A stretch of 64,000 nucleotides of DNA from Lasiodiplodia sp. COLG20. Its lineage: Eukaryota > Ascomycota > Dothideomycetes > Botryosphaeriales > Botryosphaeriaceae. The translations under genes were made by a program, and so were the position numbers. Location: positions 186,001 to 250,000 of the forward strand of contig VNWV01000004.1 in NCBI GenBank assembly GCA_009801085.1, given 5' to 3'. Below, piece by piece: positions 11,382-54,275 of this stretch; position 1 is the first letter of the stretch, and every line of letters starts with the position of its first letter. A model generated the notes under the pieces. That model was not told where the DNA came from and did not search any database. It saw nothing but the letters and a program-made list of their open reading frames with translations.

Positions 11382-13645
11382 TCAGAAACTTCTTAAAACT
11401 AAATGTCCAGTTAAGGTCATGCACACTATTGACAAAAACAAGAGCCATGCAGTATTACCTAGGTGGTTCCACTCAATTGAACAAAGGAGTGAGACGGCGA
11501 CAGCTTCCTGGGATTGAAATGAATCAGAGAAGAATTGAATATGGCACGTCTGAAATGATAGGTAGAGATTGTCACGTTGACCATTGATAATCATACTTGA
11601 GAAGAGAACCGCATCTTCCCCCTCTGATCTTTGATTCACACAAAGAGCTCCGAAATCCTCATCAACAACTGTTTTAGTTGGAACCCACACCCCGAAGACC
11701 CGATAGGCGGGAATTCCGTCTTGATATGTCCCCGTCCTCTCGGCCTCGAAGAGCACACTGGTCGTGGCAAGCCACATCGCTATTGTTAAGATTTCTCCCG
11801 AATCGACGCCGCGCTTTAGGTCGACGTCTCTGCGGAAAAGTCCTACTCGCGGACATCGCTGCGGACTTTGATCGGTGGGCCCAGAAAACATGACTCTCAC
11901 ACCTCTTTCCGCACAAAACTCCGTGTTCAGTTGCATCGCATGACAAACTGACTGATAAATCCCCCCATATACGTCATGCAATCTGTACGGCTGGCCACCA
12001 TACCCGTCGGAAATGTTGCATTTGGTCACTAAAGAGTCAAGAAGTCGAACAGTCTTTTCATCCAACGCTGGATCATCCCGGAATACGGAATCTCTGACAG
12101 CACTCCTCGCCTCTTTCAGATATGTGTAATTCCAGTTTGTTGTTACGGATGCAAAGACTCTGGCCAGATTCTGTGCCGAGATGGAGTCTGCTGATAGTGT
12201 TTCCCAAGTCTTCGCCTCAGCTGAGAGGGCTACAGCATTTGATTTCTGGCAGCGAAGCCAGATGACCCGATCTGGCGAGTGTAAAGTGACAGATCCGTGG
12301 CAACATAGCGTACCGTACACATCCAGAACACTCCGAATAGAGCCAGAGGATAGATAGTACGAAGGATGCCAAATTGCAGATTCCGTAGCATTCGTCTCGA
12401 ACAGTCCTTGAGGGGCATAACTAAGCTCTGTATATCCATTCCGGGCCCGAATTCATTTCAGAGTGTCTTGTAATAGATTTCCCACACCTTTTGTCTTGTA
12501 GTCTGAGGTGATGGGATACCCAAGATCGGCGGTGACAGCGATAACGTAATCCCATTCCCTTGTTGCCGCTCGGGGAGGCCCTCCATTCATCCTCAACAGC
12601 ATGAACAAGTTCAGCATGAACTCCATGGTGCCTTGCCTGTGAGGAACTGACCAACTGCTGCCAATGGTCTCTCCCAAGAGAAATCGGTACAGAGCGGATG
12701 ACATTTCGATTCTGTATCTGACGGAGCGTTCTCTTACTGGCCCATCGTCTTGAAAGAGAAACTAGCCTCGCAAGTACTGATTTATAACCGAAAAAGACTC
12801 TCTGATGCACTCTGAGCTACATCTTCTAAGATATGTCAGGGCAAGGGCTTTGTTCCGGCTCTCATTGTCGTAGTAGAAACGTGGGTGAACTGATGGAGAA
12901 GTAGAGCAGCATAGGGCTGTAGGCCATTGGTATCGATGTCTCCTTTGCAAGCTCTATCTGGCACAAAGACACATTTTGCGATTTCTTTTCCGGCCCAGAC
13001 ATAACGAACAAATGGAGAGTAGCTCAACTCTTGGCGGAACCATAGTCTACGAACCCAGGATGAAAGTCGACATGCGTTGAGACAGAATCGTGGGCCGAAC
13101 AAATGTTCCCAAAGAGCGCGCATGAACTCGCCGTTGAACCCGATGATGTAAGCCGACTCGTCTTCCTTGTCGTAATTGAGAGCCATTTGCTCTATCTCCC
13201 TTCGTATCCTCGGTAAGCAGGCACATGGGTGCCCGGGCATGAGAACGACTACTTCAAATGTACGATAGATCAGGGTAAATTTTGCAAATGTCTCCCTAAT
13301 TTCGTCCTCTTTCTGTGGGATGCAAAGCTGATCGATCCAAATCGGGTTCGTATTTGCAACCTCTGCGAGCCGCTCGACGACATCCTAGATGACCCATTCC
13401 TTGCCAAACACCATATGTATGCCTTCTTGACCGTTTCCGGGAGCATGCCCAATAGGCTCTTTCTCGCGATCGAATTCGCCCCAAACGTACGAGATTCCTG
13501 TTGCACTGCCGCGACGCAAGAGAATTTCGGTTTTCTCGACGATGAGATGCCGATATGGTAAAGAGAGGGAACACTTGTCGTTCTCGCATATGCTTAGGGT
13601 TGCGACACGGGCGTTGATTGAGATTTCGTTATCAGATGGGCCCAT
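11382..13645 (-). pseudogene. Degenerate HET-domain gene (pseudogene)
   Basis: Reading down from 13645, HET hallmarks are clear: SATGISYVWGEFDRE, then NPIWIDQLCIPQKEDE, then WVRRLWFRQELSYSPFVRYVW. Further family blocks follow: LALTYLRRCSSE, YRFLLGETIGSSW, EWDYVIAVTADLGYP and YTELSYAPQGLFE. The frame is broken by an in-frame TAG at 13385-13387, a one-base shift near 12905, an in-frame TAG at 12762-12764 and an in-frame TGA at 12453-12455. From memory of related HET proteins, the text on either side of each break is continuous, so introns are a poor explanation. All three stops could arise by C-to-T change (CAG to TAG, CGA to TGA). The C-terminal part, from 12450 to 11382, is still open, so decay looks recent. 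Confidence 0.75.
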
Positions 13646-14359
13646 TGCAGTCGGTGGTGCGCAAGGCTGGATACTTTGAGCTTGAGAGGCGATGAGAATG
13701 CGCTCGATACTTTATTTCCGCATCCGGCCAATGGTATGGGGAGGAAGAGAAAGACTACGTGGAGAAGCGGGCTAGAGCTAATTTGATGACGGGCGCGCGG
13801 CACACGGACTGGTTTGTTCTGAGCGAGGGATTGGGAAAGCCAGGGAGTGCGGGGTATGCAAGTCATATATGTGACCCCCGGACCCAAGGGCAAGCGAAGA
13901 CGAATCACCTATACTTTCCGACCAATAAAGGTAGCGCCTCCGGATACCCCGGATATGTGAGAATTTCATACATTTCGTCTCAGAGATCGCACCAGGATTT
14001 CCTCCACCAAGATAAAGGTTTTGTAGCGGTAGCTCAATGTGCTTGGTAAAGCCTGTCTCATCCGTTATGCTCTCCAAATGTTGTGCAATATCTACTGATT
14101 TTTGGCACAGTTTCCAGTGACGTTAGCCAATAAAGTCAATGGTCCTGACGAAGTATATAGTGGATTCAATGATACTCGCGTCTCTTTCTTTGTCGCTTGC
14201 AGGATGTTAGCAGCATATATATTCTACCCTGGCTTAAGATAGTATTCCATGGATCATTCTGCGCGTTCTTCAGATCTTTTGGGGGAAAACATAGGCACGA
14301 AGGGTAGAAAAGACGGATATTAAATCCTACAGACATCACGCAACACAGGGCAGAGGCTC
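13646..14359. other. Spacer upstream of the GGDEF gene
   Basis: No gene seen. A TATATAT run near 14214, about 145 bp before the ATG at 14360, is a possible core promoter element for the diguanylate cyclase gene. Base composition is like other fungal spacers in the window, with no bacterial-looking flank. Confidence 0.35.
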
Positions 14360-15823
14360 ATGGCCAACGAGAACTTGTACAGGGTCATGGTTCAGAATAT
14401 CCCGCACAGCGCCATCCTCCTGTTCGACCACAACATGCGCTACGAATTAGCCGATGGCAGCGCCATTCAAGAGCTGACAGGGCATGGCAGCAGCTTCTAC
14501 GTAGGCAAGCTGGCGCAAGACGTGACCAGCTTCGCCAACCGCGCACTTATCGAGGAAAACTACCGCGCGGCACTCAAGGGCGAAACACGCGATCAAGACA
14601 TGCGGATCGGCGCGCAGTTTGCGGCCTTGCACACAGCGCCCATCCGCGGCGAGAACGGCGCCATCGAACGCGGAATGGCGTTCTTATACAACATCACGGC
14701 ACGCAAGCAGCTCGAGGCCAAACTGCTGGCGCAAATCGAACATGTCGAGTTACTCTCGCAGGTTGGCGAGGAAGTGAGCAAAGCCAGCACCATGCGCGAA
14801 GCACTCGCCCGCTTGTTGCAATTGCTGGGCCCCCGCTGGAACTACGACGTGGGCCACGTCCTTCTGCATAAGGAGGACGACAAAGCCGGCAGTTTGGTGT
14901 CCTCGGACCTGTGGTGGATGTCGGATGAGGCGCGCTTCGAGCCGTTCAAGCAAGCCATCGAACAGACGGACTTCGCCCCCGGTGAAGGGCTACCCGACCA
15001 CGTCTTCCAAACGCGCAAGCCGTCCAGGTCCGTCGATCTCCAGCAAGACTCCCCACTCCACAGTGCTGCCGAGCAGTGCGGCCTGCGCAGCGCATCGGCC
15101 TTCCCGGTGCTCGTCGGCGACGACGGAGAAGCGCCTGCCGCCGTCATCCAGTTCTTCAGCACCCGCCCTTTGCCCCCCGCCGACCCGCTCCAACAACACC
15201 ACCTGTCGTCGTCACCGCCCCTCGCCGCCATCATGCAAACCATCGGCCCGCAGCTCAGCCGCGTCATCGAGCGCGAACGGCACGCCACCCACATCCACAC
15301 CCTCTCCACCACCGACGACCTCACTCACCTCCACAACCGCCGCGGCTTCCTCACCCTCGCCCACCAACAACTCAAGACCGCCGAGCGCACCCATAAACCG
15401 CTCCTCCTCCTCTTCGCCGACCTGGACGGGCTGAAAGCCGTCAACGACACGTACGGCCACGCAGCGGGCGACGGCCTCATCGCCGAGGCGGGCAGGGTGC
15501 TGCGAGAGGCATTTCGCGAGTCGGACATCGTGGCGAGGCTGGGAGGCGACGAGTTTGTGGTGATGATGCCGGATACGGATATCGATGGGAGCGGCGCGCT
15601 GTTGAGGCGGTTGAGGGCGGGGGTTGAGGAGGCGAACAACAGCAACAACAACGGAGGAGGAGGAGGAGGGGAAAGGAAGTACGGGCTTGAGTTGAGCCTG
15701 GGCCTGACGAGCTTCGATCCCGCGAGGCCGGAGACGCTCGACGGCTTGCTCGACCGTGCTGATGCGTTGATGTACGAACATAAGCAGGCACGGAAGCGCG
15801 GCAGGGATGGCGGAGCGCGCTGA
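14360..15823 (+). CDS. PAS-GAF-GGDEF diguanylate cyclase, bacterial type, 487 aa, no intron
   Basis: GGDEF enzymes condense two GTP into cyclic di-GMP, a bacterial second messenger. Residues 1-120 form a PAS sensor (SAILLFDHNMRYELADGSA, ending at FLYNITARKQLEAK). Residues about 135-300 form a GAF domain (FAPGEGLPDHVFQTRKPS, SASAFPVLVGDDGEAPAAV). Residues about 320-480 form the cyclase: DLDGLKAVNDTYGHAAGD carries the metal- and substrate-binding Asp and Asn, and residues 395-399 are GGDEF. Arg386-Glu-Ser-Asp389 stands exactly five residues before GGDEF and matches the product-inhibition I-site. No EAL or HD-GYP domain, no membrane segment. A Ser/Pro/His-rich linker and an Asn/Gly run (near residues 429-439) look like later insertions. 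Neighbours are fungal HET and acyl-CoA oxidase genes, so this is probably an integrated horizontal acquisition; the ATG context and GC-rich codons fit local genes. Confidence 0.93.
   Translation: MANENLYRVMVQNIPHSAILLFDHNMRYELADGSAIQELTGHGSSFYVGKLAQDVTSFANRALIEENYRAALKGETRDQDMRIGAQFAALHTAPIRGENGAIERGMAFLYNITARKQLEAKLLAQIEHVELLSQVGEEVSKASTMREALARLLQLLGPRWNYDVGHVLLHKEDDKAGSLVSSDLWWMSDEARFEPFKQAIEQTDFAPGEGLPDHVFQTRKPSRSVDLQQDSPLHSAAEQCGLRSASAFPVLVGDDGEAPAAVIQFFSTRPLPPADPLQQHHLSSSPPLAAIMQTIGPQLSRVIERERHATHIHTLSTTDDLTHLHNRRGFLTLAHQQLKTAERTHKPLLLLFADLDGLKAVNDTYGHAAGDGLIAEAGRVLREAFRESDIVARLGGDEFVVMMPDTDIDGSGALLRRLRAGVEEANNSNNNGGGGGGERKYGLELSLGLTSFDPARPETLDGLLDRADALMYEHKQARKRGRDGGAR
15515..15556 (+). 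other. Cyclase signature: I-site RESD plus GGDEF active loop
   Basis: Codons 15515-15526 encode Arg-Glu-Ser-Asp and 15542-15556 encode Gly-Gly-Asp-Glu-Phe. The five-residue spacing is that of feedback-inhibited bacterial diguanylate cyclases. Nothing essential is missing in this stretch. Confidence 0.9.
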
Positions 15824-16003
15824 ACGGATCCTGCTGGTGGCATTGCGCTGCATTAAAGGTGCGGAGTGGACATATCGTCATTTCTTCCGGCAATCGTATA
15901 TCCCGCACAAGGCCCCCCATACGACAGGCGAAATGGCAAATGATACCCAACCGCTTGGCTGGATCATAAAAGTTGCAGGACAGCTTAGCGGCAGGCTGTG
16001 CGC

Positions 16004-16130
16004 AAGTGATCTGTGGCCACGTCCGTTCAAATGTCGAAGTTTGACAGCCAGGCTGTCGATCCGGACCCATCAAAAAAGCAGTTCTCGAAAATCAGCCCAG
16101 CAATGAACTATAATATAGACAGATATGAAG
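16004..16130 (+). repeat. Diverged direct repeat, copy 1
   Basis: Shares TGCGCAAGTGATCTGTGGCC and CACGTCCGTTCAAATGTCGA with copy 2 (TTGCGCAAGTAGCATGTGGC, CACGTCGATTCAAAAGTCGA). Both then have a GACA...GGCTG block and, further on, AATGAACTA. Origin unknown. Confidence 0.45.
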
Positions 16131-16615
16131 AGGAAGATGTTCAAGCTATGATCACTTTCCATGACTCATGTATGAGTTCTATCAAGCTATGATGGGCTCC
16201 CACAGGAATGAATCTTGGCGATGATCATGGTTATAGACGGCAGTCCAATTTTGTGGGCAGTTGAAGGTATTGTCCGGAGATTTCTACATGGTCATTCAGT
16301 CTAAACGAACGTCAGGATATGTGCTCCAACTACTCACTGTTGACACAGCAACTTCCTGAAAGGTCGGCCGACTGGAACTGAACACCTGCTACATTTTCCA
16401 AATCTCGTGCAATATTTTTTCGCTGGAAATTCTTGACCCAGTGTTCAGTGACGTGTTCTGAGGAAGACAGGGGTTGAGTGTCTTAAATCCTACGGTTCCC
16501 ACTGCACTAATATCGCGCAACGAACGACAGAATTTTGACATGACGCGATAGGCGCGACGGCCGGTCACGCTACGCATTAGACCATAAGATGGAAGATATG
16601 GATTGCGATGTTGTA

Positions 16616-16745
16616 AATTGCGCAAGTAGCATGTGGCCACGTCGATTCAAAAGTCGAGGCTGAAGACAGGCTGGCTGCCAGCTCTCACCGATACACCAGT
16701 TTTCCCCTTTTCGGCTAGTCACATAATGAACTAGAAGATGCTCGA
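16616..16745 (+). repeat. Diverged direct repeat, copy 2
   Basis: Partner of 16004-16130, about 610 bp away in the same orientation. Alignment is clear over the first 60 bases and then patchy, with AATGAACTA recovered near the end of both. Confidence 0.45.
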
Positions 16746-17772
16746 AAAAGGCCTAAGGATTTTCGGGCCATGGCGGAGGCGGATCAAAACGCCACTCGCG
16801 ATTGACCGGCTCGGCTCGGGACGGCGATCGCGCGGCCGGCCCGATACGTTGACCTACCAGAGTTCAGGGTTGTTGAACCCTTATTGCAACCGCCGGCTAA
16901 AAATTAAAGAGAATTAACCTTTTCTTATTGACGCATGTCTGGAAGCCAAGTATGACTGCTTCTTGGCTTTGGGGGAACCGTAATTTAGCACTGTCTGGTG
17001 TTTTGATACAACGAGAACGGACGTTGACGTCACTTCCACTACCCATCTGCAGTCTTCTGTAGAAGAGCTATTTTCTCTAGAGACACCTCTATCATATTTC
17101 TTAGCACATTTACATCTAAAATCCACTCGACATCCTTATTTCGTCCCTTGAAAGTGTTGTGGAGCGGCAAGGAGGACTCGCTATGGTCCTGTGATAAAAC
17201 GCAGTAATGGAGCATTCCTCTTGTTGTACAACTTCATAGAAGGGTACGCAGGGAGTGTGTAGAACTTTGCATATCAAGGGCTGATGATGTTAAACAATTT
17301 ACGGGGTTATGGTTCCATTGCGCCGGTTGAGAGCAAAATACACTAGCGACTCATTAGCGGCAATCATTGATGTTTGCTTTCCCAACACCGCCTTGCTTTG
17401 GTCCATGCGTCCCAAAGGTGGCATCTGGCGGCCCTGTGTGATACCGCTAATCTCGTATCAGGGCGCTACATGGCTCATGACGCCCGGTGTTTGTGGCGTT
17501 GATCTTGGTGTTTCTTTATCTTTCAGCTCATGAAAGTACACCGTACAACCGACTGCCCCTTCATGTCCTACACCGCCACGAAGAAAATCAATAGAAGAAG
17601 CTGATCTCTTTGTCCAGTTGACCGCCAGACGCTAAAGCTAGCTTGAAGACATGTGACGATCCCAACAACACTTCGTTCATGTGGCAGGGGCAGCATCAGA
17701 GTACTTAAGAGGTTATGCACTGTGCCATGTAGCGCGTCTTCACTTTCTCCGAAAGCTCTAATTTCTACCACC

Positions 17773-19905
17773 ATGTCGATCGTTGAGCAGTTCCCCCAGT
17801 TGCACCCAGCCCAAATCCCCTTCACGAGGCCACTTCCTCTGAATACTATAGAACCTGCCGCGTTGTCAACCGCCGAGTACCTCCTTCAACTAGAGTCATT
17901 TCAAATCCCGGTCACATCCTTCGCCTCGCCAGAGGAGACCAAGAATGCATACGACCAAGCCCGTCTGCTCTGCAGGCATTTCAGTATGCCTCGCCCGCTC
18001 CCCCAAATAAGACGAATCAATCGCTAAAACCCCCCCACTTCCAGACCTCAGCCTCCACGACATCAAAAACCTGACGCCCCGCTTCTGGTCCTTCCACGCA
18101 GAGCGCATCCACTTCCAAACCTGCGCCGCCTCAACCCTCCTCAGCATCCACTGGAACCTCTGCATCGGCACCCTCGCCCACTACATGGACCGCCGACCGG
18201 ACCTGCACCCGCTCATCTCCCGCCTCCTCCGCTTCGACCAGATCGGCCAATTCCTCCTCACCGAAATGGGCCACGGCCTCGACGCCGCGCACCTCGAGAC
18301 GACCGCCACGCTGCAGCCCGACGGCAGCTTCTCCCTGCACACGCCGCGCATGGCCGCGGCAAAATTCATGCCCCCCACCACCCCCGACGCCGGCATCGCG
18401 GCCGGCGCCGTCGTCTTCGCGCGCCTGATCGTCGATGGCGAGGATCGCGGCGTGCGGCCGTTCTGGGTCGAGCTGCACGACGGCGCGCAAATGGCCGAGG
18501 GCGTCACGTCGATCAAGCTGCCGCGAAGGGCAGGCGCGGCGGCCGTCGACCACGCCGTCACGCTGTTCAACCGCAAGCGGCTGCCGCCCGGCGCGATGCT
18601 GGACAACAGCGACGGAGCAGCGGCGTTCGCGCGGCCGAGCAACCCGAAGAAGCATTTTTTGGGCCTGCTGCACCGCGTCGCCGTCGGCACTATGTCGCTG
18701 ACGATGAAGTACGCTGCGGACCTGCGGCAGGCGGCGTTCGTTGCGGGGAGGTACTCGCAGCGAAGGACGGTGACGGGGCCGCGGGGCCAGAAGGTGCGGA
18801 TTGTCGAGTTCCGTACGCAGCAGCGGCCGATCCTGCATGCGATTGCGCAGGCGGCGGTGTTCGAGGCGGGAGCGAAGTACTGTGCGAAGCTGTTCACGGA
18901 GGCGGAGGATCATCGTGTCAAGCATGGTGTGGCGGCGGCGTTCAAGGCGGGCGTGACTTGCATGGCGCAGGAGTCGCTGGTGCAGTTGGCGGATCGGTGC
19001 GGCGCGCAGGGCTTGTTCGAGCATAATGGGATTGTGAGGGCGCAGATGGATATGCGTGGGAATTCGATTGCCGAGGGCGATGTGCTGGCGTTGAGTATTC
19101 GTAAGTGCTTCCGTCTGACGACACTTCGCCGTTTCTCCACCACCACGAGGGATGGCGTGAGGTGTCAAGCTTTGGTGTCTTGTGGAGAGGATTTCGGGCT
19201 CCTTTTTGGATGGCTAGACCCTGTGTGATCCGGACGCATCTACGTTCGGCCATCGGCTCTCCAACCACCCACACAGCTCACACCCCCCTTGCCTTCCCCA
19301 CAAAAGACTCGTCACTAACCTCCGCTCTCCTCACAGGCCTAACATCCGAGCTCCTCCTCGGCCGCTACGAGCTGCCCCCCTCGCCCCACCCGGACTCCCT
19401 CCCCTCCCTCTACTCCGCCGGTCTCCTCGCCGAAGCCGCCGCCATCGCCGCCGAAATCATGTCTTCCTCCTCACCCTCTGGTGACAGCTCCTCCCACCGC
19501 TCCACCCGCTTCAACGCCTCCATCCTCCCCCTCGCCCAACCCCTCGTCGAAGCCCTGGGCTGGCGCCTCGTCCACGACGGCGCCCTCGCTCACAACGTCG
19601 ACTCCGATCTGCTCGCGCTGTTCGAGGCGGGCGTGGCGGTCAGGGGGGCGAGTTGGTTCGTCGAGAACGGCGTTGAAAGCTGCGGGAGTAGGCGGGAGAT
19701 CATGGCGCGGGAAGAGAGGGCGATTGATCGGCTGGTTGGGCGGCTGGACGGATTGTTGGGGGGGTTGGGGGTGGAGGGGTATTTGAGGGGACGGGTGCCG
19801 ATACTGGGGGAGGGGGAGTGGGAGGGTTTCGTGGCGGGGTTGCCGAGGTTTGAGAGTGGTGGGGGTGTGAGGGAGAGAAGGAGGAGGGGGGAGGCGAGGC
19901 TTTGA
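17773..19905 (+). CDS. Acyl-CoA oxidase-like flavoprotein with C-terminal PTS1, 611 aa, 3 exons
   Basis: Exons 17773-17983, 18045-19100 and 19337-19905. The start has a strong context (CTACCACC before ATG). Acyl-CoA oxidases carry out the first, FAD-dependent step of peroxisomal beta-oxidation and make H2O2. Visible family blocks are LTPRFWSFHAERIHF near the N-terminus, the flavin-side motif FLLTEMGHGLDAAHLETTA, an acyl-CoA dehydrogenase-like middle domain, and a helical C-terminal domain (RGNSIAEGDVLALSIRL, LLLGRYELP). The last three residues are Ala-Arg-Leu, a good peroxisomal targeting signal type 1. Intron 1 has a GTATGC donor and CGCTAAAAC branch; intron 2 (236 nt) has GTAAGT. At 611 aa it is shorter than typical 660-700 aa oxidases. 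Whether it is a true oxidase or another peroxisomal acyl-CoA dehydrogenase-fold enzyme is not settled. Confidence 0.82.
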
Positions 19906-49063: not shown

Positions 49064-52000
49064 TCACGAGAGATCGTTTGGAGCCCATTGCGTTGACCCC
49101 AGGCTGGCGTCCGATATGAACCTGAAACTTTCCATGCAAGGGCCTTCCACCAAATTTTCGACATCCCAGCCATGATCTTTGTGATCCACCTGCTTCAATT
49201 GCCAGTGCTCTTCAATGAGACGATTCGATAGCTTCTCCCTTTGCTGCATGCAACGCTCATGGTTGTAACCTGGTATGACCGATGCCATGTAGTCTTGGCT
49301 GTTTTTCATGGTCGTCATATATTCTTTGACACTCTGTTCCAGGTCCTGCGACCTTGCTGAAGGATAGATGTCTCTGCGTATGCGCTCTGTCCTGATGTAG
49401 TCCATCATCGCGCATCTCCGCGCTAGAGTCTTGACCAGTTGATCTTCCCAAAGACCTTCAAAAAGCACGGGATCCCTTTCAAGTCGTGACCCAAGCTCAC
49501 CTTCTTCAGCATGGATTTCTGCCCAGTCCCTGTGGATACTTTCTAAGTCCCTCTGCCGTTTCCATCTAGGGTCGGCGTCGAATCGTGACTTTTCAGGCCA
49601 TGAGCGGTCATTGGGAGGCCAATACTTAGGCAATTTTTGACATGAAGAATAGCAGCAGGTGTGTGTCAAGCCTATCTCATCACTTCTTTGGAATCTGTCC
49701 AGTTCTGCAATGTATGCAGAAATAATGTCGCCTTTGTTGCATTCTTGGAGTATGATGAAGAACTCAAGGATCCACACGTAATGAATGTGAGTGTCTGTTT
49801 CAAGAGGTAATGCTGGAACAAGCGCTCGCAGCGGGGAGCATCCTTGGGGCGAACAGTAGCACTGGCAGTTGTCTTTTTGTAGTAAGTCACCGCCAGCCTG
49901 GATCAGGACTGTTGCTGTTTCCATCATCTTTTTGGAGGATTCAATATCCGAAATCGGGTACCAAATGGATTTGTCAGAGAAACCAGCTTGTATTGTGCAA
50001 TGCAGAGCAGTTTGCCCCCTGTGATCGGTGTGGTTGATGCGAGCCCCTTTTCTCAGGGTTTCTTGCAACAGTATAGGGTCCAAGAACCAAGAAAATATCA
50101 TCAGAGGGGTGTAGCCTTCATGATTGGACGATTTGTTGATGTCAAGGCCGGGATACTCCAGAAGCCTTCGTGCATGCTGCGAAGATGATGCATAATGAAG
50201 AAGGTTGAAGCCGTCCCTTTCGTAATGATACGGATGCACCTCTGCAGAAGTCGACATCTTTGACAAGAGATAATCCGCCGCTTCCAAATTCCAGGAGTGC
50301 GGATAAGGTGAAGCAAATGCCACAGGTTCGAAGATCTCGGAGGAAACCCGCCAATGTGGGGTCTTGCGTATAAAGCAATTCAGCAGATGAAGGAGTGGTT
50401 TCTCATCTTCAGCTCCTATTGCGTAGGCTAAACTGCTTTCAAGTTTGCCGTCCGCTGGCCATATTGGAGGGAAATCTGCTCCCGCCTCCACAAGGATGGT
50501 TATGGAGTCGAGGAATCCGTACACAAGTGCATAACAAAGTGGAGTAGCACCATGGACATTTAGCGAGTTTATTCCAGATGAGTAACCACTTCTCAGCAGT
50601 AGATCCAGTATCGATGGCCATTGCACTGCAAGGTGGAGCACTGTATGCCCTAGAAAGTTTTCAGACAAGTCTATTTGACTGTGTGTCTTGAGGTATCTCT
50701 CCACCTCGTCCAGCGTGCCAAAGGATACAGCACGATGTAATGGCATGTACTCTCCCATGTCTACATGATATGTTAGCCCATAATAAAAATCATAGATCAC
50801 TACATCTTACCAAGTTCGGACTTGCAAATTTGGGTGAACGCTCGGAGCCACCAACGGTCCGTAGAAACTCGGCGATGTCCGTCTAAATCCGGGTAATCCA
50901 AACCCAGCCCGTAAATGTGGCATAACCGCGGATTGTCAAGTGGCGGTAAGGCTCTTATAAGCTCTAGTTTAAACCCTTCGGGGGACCATAAGCCACGTGC
51001 TAATGAACTTTTCCAGGTTACTCCTTCTTGAGCAAGAAACTTGGCTAGCCGTAATTGCGACTGGTGCCTGTCTCCATCCACGTCGTAGAAACATACTGTC
51101 TGATATGTTGTTAACGTCTGTGAATGCCTAAAAACTCTTTGATTGCAACATACCTCAAGGTATCCATCTTCCCACTTTGTCGAGTCATTGAAATCTATGA
51201 CTCCATTCTGGCGCAGAGTTTTCAGCTCCGCCAGCGCCTTCTCGACAGTTATTGTGCCGGAATAAAGACATTGGCGAAGAACTTCGAATCCTGGATTTTC
51301 ACTGTCGACGATGTTCTGGAATTTCAAAGAGCAGGTGAGTGAGAGACCGGAGGCCCAGCTTGCCCCGAGGCTGAGTTTGACGTATTTCCCCAGAACCGTA
51401 GCGCTTAACACATATCGCTCACCAGAACAACTGCACCCAGCCGATCTGGAAGCTGGCTTCACAAGCCACCCGCGATTTGATATTTTGTGGCAGGCACAAG
51501 TGCAGTCGCCTGAAGCGCAAGATATTCCGTTGCCTCTGCGTCGCTGACTGTGGGAAAGCAAACGAACAGGAAAGTGGTCCTGCGCCGGGGATGGATCTGT
51601 CATTTCGACAGGACGTTTCACTTCGTGTGCCTGTTGTGCTGCGTGCTGCTCCTCGAATAGGAACAGCAGCCTCCTGGTATTCTTCTCCGTCTCGCGACAT
51701 ATATGCAGGAGTATGACCTCTCGGTAGTCGTTCAAGTCTTCGAGTATCGCTTTCACGCGGTGGTCCTTGAAGAACGCCCGGACGGCATGCAACGTCTTGT
51801 TGAACGTGGAGGAGTTCGGGCCTGGCACCAGGGAAGTGACAAGGCTGTCCAGCTCCTCAATACGGAGCTTGCAACCTCCGAGAACCTCATAGAGTAGTGT
51901 CTCCTCTTCTCCCGAATCTTCTCCGGTTCGAGTGGTCTTCTCCAGAGCTTTGATGTTGCTGGAGAACAGCTGCAGCTGTGACCGCAGCCTGATGAATGCG

Positions 52001-52110
52001 GCGTTGCTGCGGTACTCTTTGATGCGGTCGACGAGCTTGTTGCATGCGTCGACTACTTGGATGACTGAAGCGCTGACGCTAAGGACGGCTACGAGCTCGG
52101 CGCCAGACAT
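49064..52110 (-). CDS. Ankyrin-repeat protein with fungal STAND-type N-terminal domain, 980 aa, 3 exons
   Basis: Exons, in transcript order, are 52110-51154, 51099-50811 and 50760-49064. Residues 1-130 (MSGAELVAVLSVSASVIQVV, then DRIKEYRS and RSQLQLFSSNIKAL) match the helical N-terminal domain found on fungal STAND/NLR-like and HeLo-like proteins. A Cys-rich patch follows (CASGDCTCACHKISNRG, CSCSGERY), as in many ankyrin relatives. After the last splice site come ankyrin repeats (MPLHRAVSFGTLDEVERYL, HTVLHLAVQWPSILDLLL, GATPLCYALVYGFLDSITIL, GYTPLMIFSW, GQTALHCTIQAGF). There is no NACHT or NB-ARC nucleotide-binding domain. Role may be in recognition or cell-death signalling, inferred only from the N-terminal domain. 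Intron 1 is 54 nt and in frame, so its removal is less certain. Confidence 0.82.
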
Positions 52111-54275
52111 GGCGAGAGAAGTAGAAAAAGTGATTTCATGAAAAAAAAAAAAAAAAATCTTGCGGAGAAGAGAGATTTGAGAGAGAAGAGTTGCAAGCCT
52201 CAAGGCGGGGAAGCAAGGCTGTGTTGGCGGGGGGCCGAATGGGGAAAGGATCGCAGCCAATCGCCCCATGCCGGCGCCTAGCACAGCCCCGAGATGTTGT
52301 TGACTGGAACATCGTAGAGTTCCACCTTTTCTTTGGGATGAATCTTTGCAGTGATGTGGTTGGTGAGGTTGGTGTCGATGAAACTCAACACCAACTCCGC
52401 TCTAAATAAAGACTTGGCCAAGGAGTCAATAAGACTGGACTTTAGGTGCTCATGTCATTCGGCTACAACACTTCAAACAACCTCTTTGTATGCATAAGAC
52501 TTAGCTAACGCCTATACAAGAAGATATAGTCCAAGATTCTAAGATAGATCAAGAGCAGAACTTCATCCGGAATGGAGAGAGGACAGTTCTTTATAGAACC
52601 AATAGGAGCTCAGAGAAAGTAAGAGCTCGAATCGAGACGATCTGCACGCGCATCGCGACAAAGTGAAAGTGAAAGCCAAGAAATCGACCAGTGGCAGTGA
52701 ATCTTGATAAGACCAGCCCTGAACAACATTGTCAAATCAGGGAGACCGCCACTTCTCACACCTCGCCCCCTCGGTGGCCCAAGCCCCCCATCCTCCCCGC
52801 ACGAAAAGGAGAGAAAAAGAACCTGCGCAATTTCTCCAAATTACCCACAGTCCTCCATGCGCGACGATGTATTTTTACCTACCTACCGTCTGCCCCACAT
52901 TGTTGTACATCGGAACGAGTTGCCCAGGGTCCCTGCGCCACCACACCACACCGCACCACACACACCTCTCTTTCCGCGACCCACGACTCGCGACGCCACA
53001 CCAAACAGCAGGCACAAATATCACCATCTGTCTCCCTCATACCACCACGGCACTGCAGCAAGATTTTTGCATATTGCACCGCCGCCTCTCGCACCACCGT
53101 CGTCCGTACGTGACGCTACTTGCTTACCGAAAGCGGAAAGCATAGTGCGAGGACTCGTCAGACGATCACGCACCGCTGCGCCGACGACCCGACACCCCAC
53201 GTCCAGGCAACCACCATTATTGCGCGTGTGCCCATCACCATGCCAACTCCTGAAGCGCGGGAATCCTGCTCTCACCCCCCCTCCCCTTTCATTTTTCTTT
53301 TCGTCGTAGCAAGCAGTCTGGTCGACACATCGTCGTCGTTCTGCGCGATGCCGAGTAAAAAGGGACAAGTATGGCAATCCGGCAAAAAGTAGCCGAAATG
53401 AGCAAGAATCCGAAACATTGCGGGGCTGCAACCTGTAGCATAGTAGTACAGTAGTGTGTACTGTTAGGCAGAAGACCCTTTTTTCCTTCCCACCGCCGTG
53501 TGACGAACTGTTGCGCAGCTGATCCGTTCCACCCCGTTTAACGTCTGTCCATATCGTATCGTATCTCTCGGCGCACCCGGACCATATCGGCTCGCCGAAT
53601 AGAAATTTGGCGGGAGCGATGGAAAGAAAAAAATGTTCTCGAACGATAGCTCCGGCCCCTCTCTCGGCGCTTCTCGTCTGGGGGTGTCCGCGAGATCCTG
53701 GAACGTGCCGGTTTCGCGCCAGATCGAGTATCGTGTTCCGGACGGTGTTGGTTGGAGGGAAGGTGAAGAACGAAAAGTGTCACGCAGAAGGGGAGAAACG
53801 AGGTAACTTTGTACGACGATGAAAAGTAGTAGTTGGACAAGAAGAAACGCAGATCGCGGGATTTAGATTCGATATCTACTCCCCACAACAAACAGCTACA
53901 ACCGAGACCCAGATTTCTCTTTTTCTTCTTTTGGTAATTCTGAGCCCCTCCCCTCCGCAAATTCGACAAAAAGAAAAAGGAACTTTATATGGATCGCTTT
54001 TCTTGTTTGCCCCTTGTTGGAAGGCGTTCTCTTGTCTCTCTGTTCACACAAACACAAAAAAGTAAAGGCCGAGGTGAAGCGCGGATTATGTAGTAATAAG
54101 TAGGCGGAGGTGAGTAAGGTTGGCTTTTCTTTTCCTTGGACCCAAACGCGGAAGATATCTCTCTTCCAGGGCCGTTTGAGGGGGAGCGAGACAAAAAAAG
54201 GAAGGCATGACATGCTGTTTGAGCACCTCTTCAAATATAGAATACAGGAGGAAGAAGACCATGGACGTACGGCTG
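52111..54275. other. 2.2-kb gene-poor region
   Basis: Begins with the ankyrin gene's leader, which contains a 17-base A run at 52141-52157. The middle (52700-53350) is C-rich with many overlapping low-complexity frames on the plus strand; none has a domain or convincing start. The right end should hold the 3' UTR of ORM1. An unannotated non-coding transcript is possible. Confidence 0.35.
52141..52157. repeat. Poly-A homopolymer in the leader of the ankyrin gene
   Basis: Seventeen A, read as poly-T/U in the transcript leader 30 bp upstream of the ATG. Confidence 0.75.

What the first reader, a model, noticed from the sequence alone, without database searches (positions are those of the whole stretch)
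14360..15823. A complete bacterial-type PAS-GAF-GGDEF diguanylate cyclase gene inside a fungal chromosome
Seen: PAS, GAF and GGDEF domains in one open frame, with the catalytic GGDEF at residues 395-399 and the DLDGLKAVND metal/substrate motif. Known: cyclic di-GMP made by GGDEF enzymes is a bacterial messenger, with Dictyostelium DgcA the classic eukaryotic case; I know of no characterised fungal pathway. Inference: an integrated horizontal transfer kept under selection, since 487 codons remain open beside a HET gene that has decayed. It could give this fungus c-di-GMP signalling or another cyclic dinucleotide.
Basis: partly seen in the sequence, partly recalled or inferred. Interest (0 to 1): 0.93.

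Follow-up and report, generated by a model that had tools for sequence, protein, structure and literature searches.

The report
Bacterial c-di-GMP synthase in a fungus
A fungus of the Lasiodiplodia group carries, in its own chromosome, an intact and conserved copy of a bacterial enzyme gene for making the signal molecule cyclic di-GMP, which among eukaryotes has so far been described as made only by a slime mould.

Summary
Window 14360-15823 (+) is an intact, intronless 487-codon frame with PAS_4, GAF_2 and GGDEF domains over Pfam cut-offs, on a 3.22 Mb contig among fungal genes. It is not contamination: five close relatives exist (75-96% identical; two named Lasiodiplodia, three unnamed), and for three of the five the acyl-CoA oxidase next door has its orthologue on a contig of exactly the same length. 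The six proteins form one clade (100/100) apart from bacterial-type PAS-GAF-GGDEF proteins (about 37% identical; donor unresolved). A degenerate local duplication lacking the gene suggests a single-gene insertion of about 1.7 kb. Most likely it is a soluble, sensor-gated diguanylate cyclase making c-di-GMP. Activity, expression, ligand and receptor are untested; the genome showed no EAL, HD_5 (HD-GYP) or PilZ match, so any downstream pathway would be new. My literature searches found no report of a fungal diguanylate cyclase.

The parts
14360..15823 (+). PAS-GAF-GGDEF diguanylate cyclase gene, 487 codons, intronless
14411..14710 (+). PAS_4 domain (residues 18-117)
   Evidence: pLDDT of 10-residue blocks 83-95
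14786..15169 (+). GAF_2 domain (residues 143-270)
   Evidence: the residue range 121-300 is the least conserved part between the window and each of its five relatives
15182..15214 (+). Low-confidence Pro/Ser/His-rich linker between GAF and signalling helix (residues 275-285), variable in the fungal clade
15221..15310 (+). Long helix into the GGDEF domain (residues 288-317)
15308..15796 (+). GGDEF domain (residues 317-479)
15419..15448 (+). DLDGLKAVND: metal ligand D354, K359, guanine contact N362
   Evidence: roles recalled from PleD/WspR work
15470..15472 (+). D371, guanine-specificity position (Ser in 6d9m)
15515..15526 (+). RESD, inhibitory-site motif RxxD (residues 386-389), five residues before GGDEF
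15542..15556 (+). GGDEF active-site motif (residues 395-399)
15653..15670 (+). Glycine-rich low-complexity loop (residues 432-437), length varies among the fungal proteins
14073..14148 (+). 5' flank that matches 16397-16477 of a degenerate local duplication
15922..16116 (+). 3' flank that matches 16546-16739 of the same duplication
16397..16739 (+). Paralogous copy of both flanks without the cyclase gene (candidate 'empty site')
   Evidence: the ORF does not match it beyond chance (277 of 500 shuffles as good)
18011..19228 (+). Exon of an acyl-CoA oxidase gene, the syntenic neighbour
12836..13645 (-). Interrupted HET-domain gene remnant

Best explanation
A bacterial gene for a soluble PAS-GAF-GGDEF diguanylate cyclase entered an ancestor of the Lasiodiplodia lineage by horizontal transfer, was fixed beside an acyl-CoA oxidase gene, and has been inherited and kept under purifying selection (supported by sequence: integration, synteny, monophyly, conserved catalytic domain). 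Inferred: PAS and GAF sense an unknown cytosolic signal; the helix from GAF into GGDEF pairs two subunits; each GGDEF domain binds one GTP through GGDEF, D354, N362 and D371, and the two are condensed to c-di-GMP; the product binds RESD and limits its own synthesis. With no EAL, HD_5 or PilZ match in the genome, the product must act through, and be removed by, proteins not of the usual bacterial kinds, or leave the cell.
Against: No transcript, protein or enzyme data. No DNA of relatives, so no dN/dS. 23 of the 85 conserved columns are not identical to the bacterial residue in all six: 3 in residues 1-120, 13 in 121-300, 7 beyond 300, of which 6 in the GGDEF domain itself, so sensing and perhaps catalysis may have changed. 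The motif DELTGL reads DDLTHL in five and DDLTRL in one of the six, and three of the six lack four residues in the helix before GGDEF. No partner domains found. It reached none of the equivalog cut-offs of named cyclases in NCBIfam. No structure covers the whole model (best TM-score 0.34 by query length among the 50 listed).
Confidence: 0.74

Rival explanations
1. The gene is a genuine transfer but now works as a GTP- or c-di-GMP-binding protein without cyclase activity, or is a slowly decaying relic.
For: Residues 121-300 (GAF and linker) are loosely constrained and low-complexity insertions have appeared; 6 bacterially conserved GGDEF-domain columns differ; no pathway partners found.
Against: The recalled catalytic and specificity residues from D354 to GGDEF are kept in 6 of 6; the GGDEF region is the most conserved part between window and nearest relative. 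All six listed proteins are full length, though the search (0.55-1.75 times query length) would miss heavily broken copies.
Confidence: 0.15
2. The enzyme is active, and its product serves outside the fungus, as a secreted signal to bacteria, to the plant or between hyphae, as c-di-GMP does between Dictyostelium cells.
For: No recognisable intracellular receptor or hydrolase; Dictyostelium precedent of secreted c-di-GMP with no receptor known in 2015 (PMC4686194, passages).
Against: No exporter evidence was sought; sensor domains suggest response to an internal cue. This is a sub-case of the best explanation.
Confidence: 0.2
3. It makes another cyclic dinucleotide, such as 3',3'-cGAMP, like the Hypr GGDEF enzymes.
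For: The fold is the same, and 6d9m is the fifth-nearest solved sequence.
Against: The position that is Ser in 6d9m is Asp (D371) here and in the other four alignments shown; the Asp and N362 are in 6 of 6.
Confidence: 0.05
4. Bacterial contamination or misassembly.
For: Bacterial-type domains and no introns.
Against: 3.22 Mb contig, same neighbour gene in three other assemblies, separate clade. Weak control: a search of the genome with the bacterial SSU model (5 of 977 candidates scored) gave two matches, one a eukaryotic 18S on C67, one on the 72,660-base contig C47, whose DNA beside it is 29-38% GC and whose frames under code 4 read to me as mitochondrial.
Confidence: 0.01

Closest known systems
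Bacterial PAS-GAF-GGDEF proteins; P0007, P0012 (Polyangiaceae), P0026 (Polyangiales), P0030 (Myxococcota)
   Same: Co-linear PAS, GAF, helix, GGDEF; 36-37% identity over 92-100% of the query for these four; same active-site residues
   Different: P0006, P0007 and P0012 have extra N-terminal PAS or GAF regions; the fungal proteins begin at the last PAS and carry low-complexity linkers
Dictyostelium DgcA
   Same: A prokaryote-type diguanylate cyclase in a eukaryote, single gene, ascribed to transfer from bacteria, receptor unknown in 2015 (PMC4686194 and PMC10399225, passages)
   Different: Different eukaryotic kingdom; here a PAS-GAF form. DgcA's sequence was not compared
Lasiodiplodia proteins P0004 and P0005, deposited as (putative) diguanylate cyclase YegE
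   Same: Likely orthologues, 75-76% identical, same neighbour gene
   Different: The label is database naming. YegE/DgcE of E. coli has a MASE1 domain (title of PMC6510439, listing; YegE = DgcE recalled); no MASE1 was found here
PleD / WspR / T. maritima GGDEF (1w25, 3i5c, 4urs)
   Same: GGDEF fold and, for 4urs, aligned active site and RxxD
   Different: Input domains differ (receiver domains in PleD and WspR, recalled)

Membership tests
GGDEF diguanylate cyclase | Match to the GGDEF profile over curated cut-off | tested here: met
   126.4 bits against 23.8; TIGR00254 128.2 against 37.4
GGDEF diguanylate cyclase | GG(D/E)EF motif and metal/phosphate residues | tested here: met
   D354, K359, GGDEF 395-399, K475, R478 in the window; D354-F399 motif in 6 of 6, K475 and R478 in 6 of 6; roles recalled
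GGDEF diguanylate cyclase | Guanine-specific Asn and Asp | tested here: met
   N362, D371; roles recalled
GGDEF diguanylate cyclase | RxxD inhibitory site (common, not universal) | tested here: met
   RESD or RASD at 386-389 in 6 of 6
GGDEF diguanylate cyclase | Makes c-di-GMP from GTP | not testable with these tools
   needs an assay
Hypr GGDEF (cGAMP synthase) | Ser in place of the guanine-specificity Asp (recalled) | tested here: not met
   D371 aligned with Ser of 6d9m
Bacterial c-di-GMP network | EAL, HD-GYP or PilZ partner in the same genome | tested here: not met
   0 matches for PF00563, PF07238, PF13487, each of which rings in bacterial control genomes; six-frame search, blind to introns
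Horizontally acquired, integrated fungal gene | Fungal flanks on one contig, shared neighbour in other isolates | tested here: met
   3 of 5 relatives
Horizontally acquired, integrated fungal gene | Fungal sequences nested among bacteria, donor resolved | tested here: inconclusive
   fungal clade 100/100, but deepest split 34/92 and donor unresolved

The most novel reading that the evidence does not exclude
Lasiodiplodia fungi make c-di-GMP with a sensor-gated cyclase captured from bacteria, and use it in a signalling pathway whose receptor and hydrolase are of a new, eukaryotic kind, or as a secreted signal to bacteria or plants: the first c-di-GMP system in the fungal kingdom.
Probability: 0.5. 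Interest if true: 0.9.

Novelty: new member of a known kind. Interest (0 to 1): 0.74.

Why it matters
c-di-GMP is treated as a bacterial messenger, and a 2023 paper calls Dictyostelium the only eukaryote known to make it (PMC10399225, passages). A conserved, apparently selected cyclase in a genus of woody-plant fungi would be a second case in another kingdom. It gives a way to ask how a captured bacterial second messenger is wired into a eukaryotic cell, and what receives it.

Tried and rejected
Donor by phylogeny: tree of 62 rows, 60 different (61 of the 120 listed hits plus the window; 59 left out for covering under 330 query residues or having no BLAST hit): the fungal clade is firm, its bacterial sister is not. 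The MIT1 search showed no shared contig length (the L. theobromae cluster's longest contig is 26,730 bases), so it served only to place the genus. The contig lengths of P0002 and P0003 (18,371; 26,932) are not among the 120 listed of 400 acyl-CoA oxidase hits, so synteny is shown for 3 of 5. Copies of the 15824-17000 flank elsewhere in the genome: only itself. GC3 (0.805 against 0.825 in the neighbour exon) does not separate the gene from its host. The 1.7 kb 'empty site' rests on matches of 70-72% over 58-88 bases; loss of the gene from a second copy would look the same.

Literature: searches (30 papers, 20 listed; 0; 7; 46, 20 listed; 1,643, 10 listed; 11; 28, 15 listed; 0; 0) and 73 (2) gave no paper on a fungal diguanylate cyclase in what I saw. 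The two papers use the words in other senses (passages). PMC8778642 has no GGDEF or diguanylate. Only open-licence PMC papers are held, so most subscription papers and bioRxiv's own preprints were not searched.

Full report

Where it lies. The window is G000:C34:186001-250000; C34 is 3,224,542 bases long. In the window are HET, GH79-type, GDSL, acyl-CoA oxidase, Rieske oxygenase, MIT1 chromatin remodeller, PLD-like, RRP4 and INO80-Iec3 genes. MIT1 is 95% identical to L. theobromae, 89% to Diplodia seriata and 87% to D. corticola, which places the genome in or beside Lasiodiplodia (inference). A search with the bacterial SSU model gave two matches (5 of 977 candidates scored): C67 is better matched by the eukaryotic model; C47 matches the bacterial model at 612.7 bits. 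C47 is 72,660 bases, 29-38% GC near the gene, and under code 4 has frames that read to me as Nad4 and a ribosomal-protein-like ORF, so I take it as the mitochondrion.

Relatives. Only the 7,996 candidates sharing most words were scored; 6,044 match at E<=0.001 and 120 are listed. The top five are full-length: P0001 96%, P0002 86%, P0003 82% (unnamed assemblies, taken as fungal), P0004 L. hormozganensis 76%, P0005 L. theobromae 75%. The next hit drops from 762 to 295 bits at 37% identity. Of the other 115 listed, 12 bear an organism name, all bacterial: seven Polyangiaceae, Polyangiales or Myxococcota (P0007, P0012, P0026, P0030, P0044, P0055, P0060) and five others (Poribacteria, Gemmatimonadetes twice, Nitrospirae, and one named Cytophagaceae or Gemmatimonadaceae). 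No listed hit is named as Diplodia, Macrophomina or Neofusicoccum, although proteins of these genera are in the database. This suggests gain in the Lasiodiplodia lineage, but unnamed hits, missing annotation or loss cannot be excluded.

Synteny. A search with the neighbouring acyl-CoA oxidase exon (18011-19225) finds its close relatives on contigs of 1,294,035 (L. theobromae), 95,203 (L. hormozganensis) and 60,739 bases (unnamed), exactly the contig lengths of P0005, P0004 and P0001. Three of five relatives thus share the neighbour; for the other two no match was seen among the 120 listed. I read equal length as same contig.

Tree. With 62 rows (61 of 120 hits plus the window), the six proteins form one group with support 100/100, in all of 200 bootstrap trees; the deep bacterial order is weak (34/92), so the donor is not resolved.

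Selection. No DNA of relatives was available, so dN/dS was not computed. Proxies: full-length frames in 6 of 6; between window and P0001 the differences are 1/120 (residues 1-120), 16/180 (121-300), 0/186 (301-487), Fisher p=0.0004; columns conserved in the 24 bacterial-type rows of A2 vary less among the six (17/85 against 144/371, p=0.001), and 62 of these 85 keep the bacterial residue in all six. Of the 23 that do not, 13 lie in residues 121-300 and 6 in the GGDEF domain. The GAF region is the freest part, which may mean a changed signal.

Catalysis. D354, K359, N362, D371, R386xxD389, GGDEF 395-399, K475 and R478 are present; the motif from D354 to F399 is in 6 of 6, as are K475 and R478. 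In the Geobacter protein 6d9m the position of D371 is Ser; I recall this as the mark of GGDEF enzymes that make cGAMP, so the fungal enzyme is predicted to be GTP-specific. Residue roles are recalled from PleD and WspR work. No run of 18 small or hydrophobic residues was seen, so a soluble protein is inferred. In NCBIfam only the general GGDEF domain model reached its cut-off; none of the named cyclase equivalogs did.

Partners. The genome has one GGDEF match, this gene, and none for EAL, PilZ or HD_5 of HD-GYP; all four families ring in bacterial control genomes. The search was by six frames and could miss split exons.

Insertion site. 14073-14148 matches 16397-16477, and 15922-16116 matches 16546-16739, same order and strand. 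BLAST finds the cores of both at 72% over 58 and 70% over 88 columns (E 1e-4 and 6e-9); 0 of 500 shuffles score as well for either flank, whereas the ORF matches the second copy no better than shuffles (277 of 500 as good). The best split puts 14154-15854, 1,701 bases, as extra sequence in the first copy; the next seven splits score within 3.1 of 126.1 and shift the ends to 14137-14171 and 15855-15883. So the gene, with about 200 bases before it and 30-60 after, looks like an insertion into one half of an old duplication; deletion from the second half would look alike.

Literature. PMC10399225 (passages) says D. [quoted passage not shown] PMC4686194 (passages) says there was no information on its receptors. 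Botryosphaeriaceae transfer studies PMC11051394 (section 3.7 and passages; its table was not seen) and PMC13188853 (one section and passages) do not mention a diguanylate cyclase in what I read. GGDEF+Botryosphaeriaceae and two searches on fungal cyclases gave 0 papers; Lasiodiplodia+diguanylate gave two, both unrelated. The Lasiodiplodia proteins bear the database name YegE, so the sequence is public, but I found no discussion of it.

Verdict. Contamination is excluded for practical purposes; the transfer and its conservation are supported by sequence; enzyme activity is likely (about 0.75-0.8, my estimate) and the signalling role plausible but open.

Noticed in passing
window 12836-13645 (-): HET-domain gene interrupted by an in-frame stop, with the same frame broken by many stops down to 11382; introns not modelled.
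   Followed up: partly
window 14073-14148, 15922-16116, 16397-16739: Degenerate local duplication around the cyclase; the second copy lacks the gene and may be a paralogous empty site.
   Followed up: yes
window 49067-52401 (-): SesA-domain frame next to an ankyrin-repeat frame, perhaps one NLR-like incompatibility gene with a frame break or intron.
   Followed up: no
P0003, P0004, P0005 against the window: Four residues are missing in the helix just before GGDEF, which could shift its register and the enzyme's resting activity.
   Followed up: partly
window 18011-19905 (+): Acyl-CoA oxidase whose nearest named relative outside Lasiodiplodia is only 64% identical (Neofusicoccum parvum), perhaps a fast-evolving or lineage-specific copy.
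   Followed up: no
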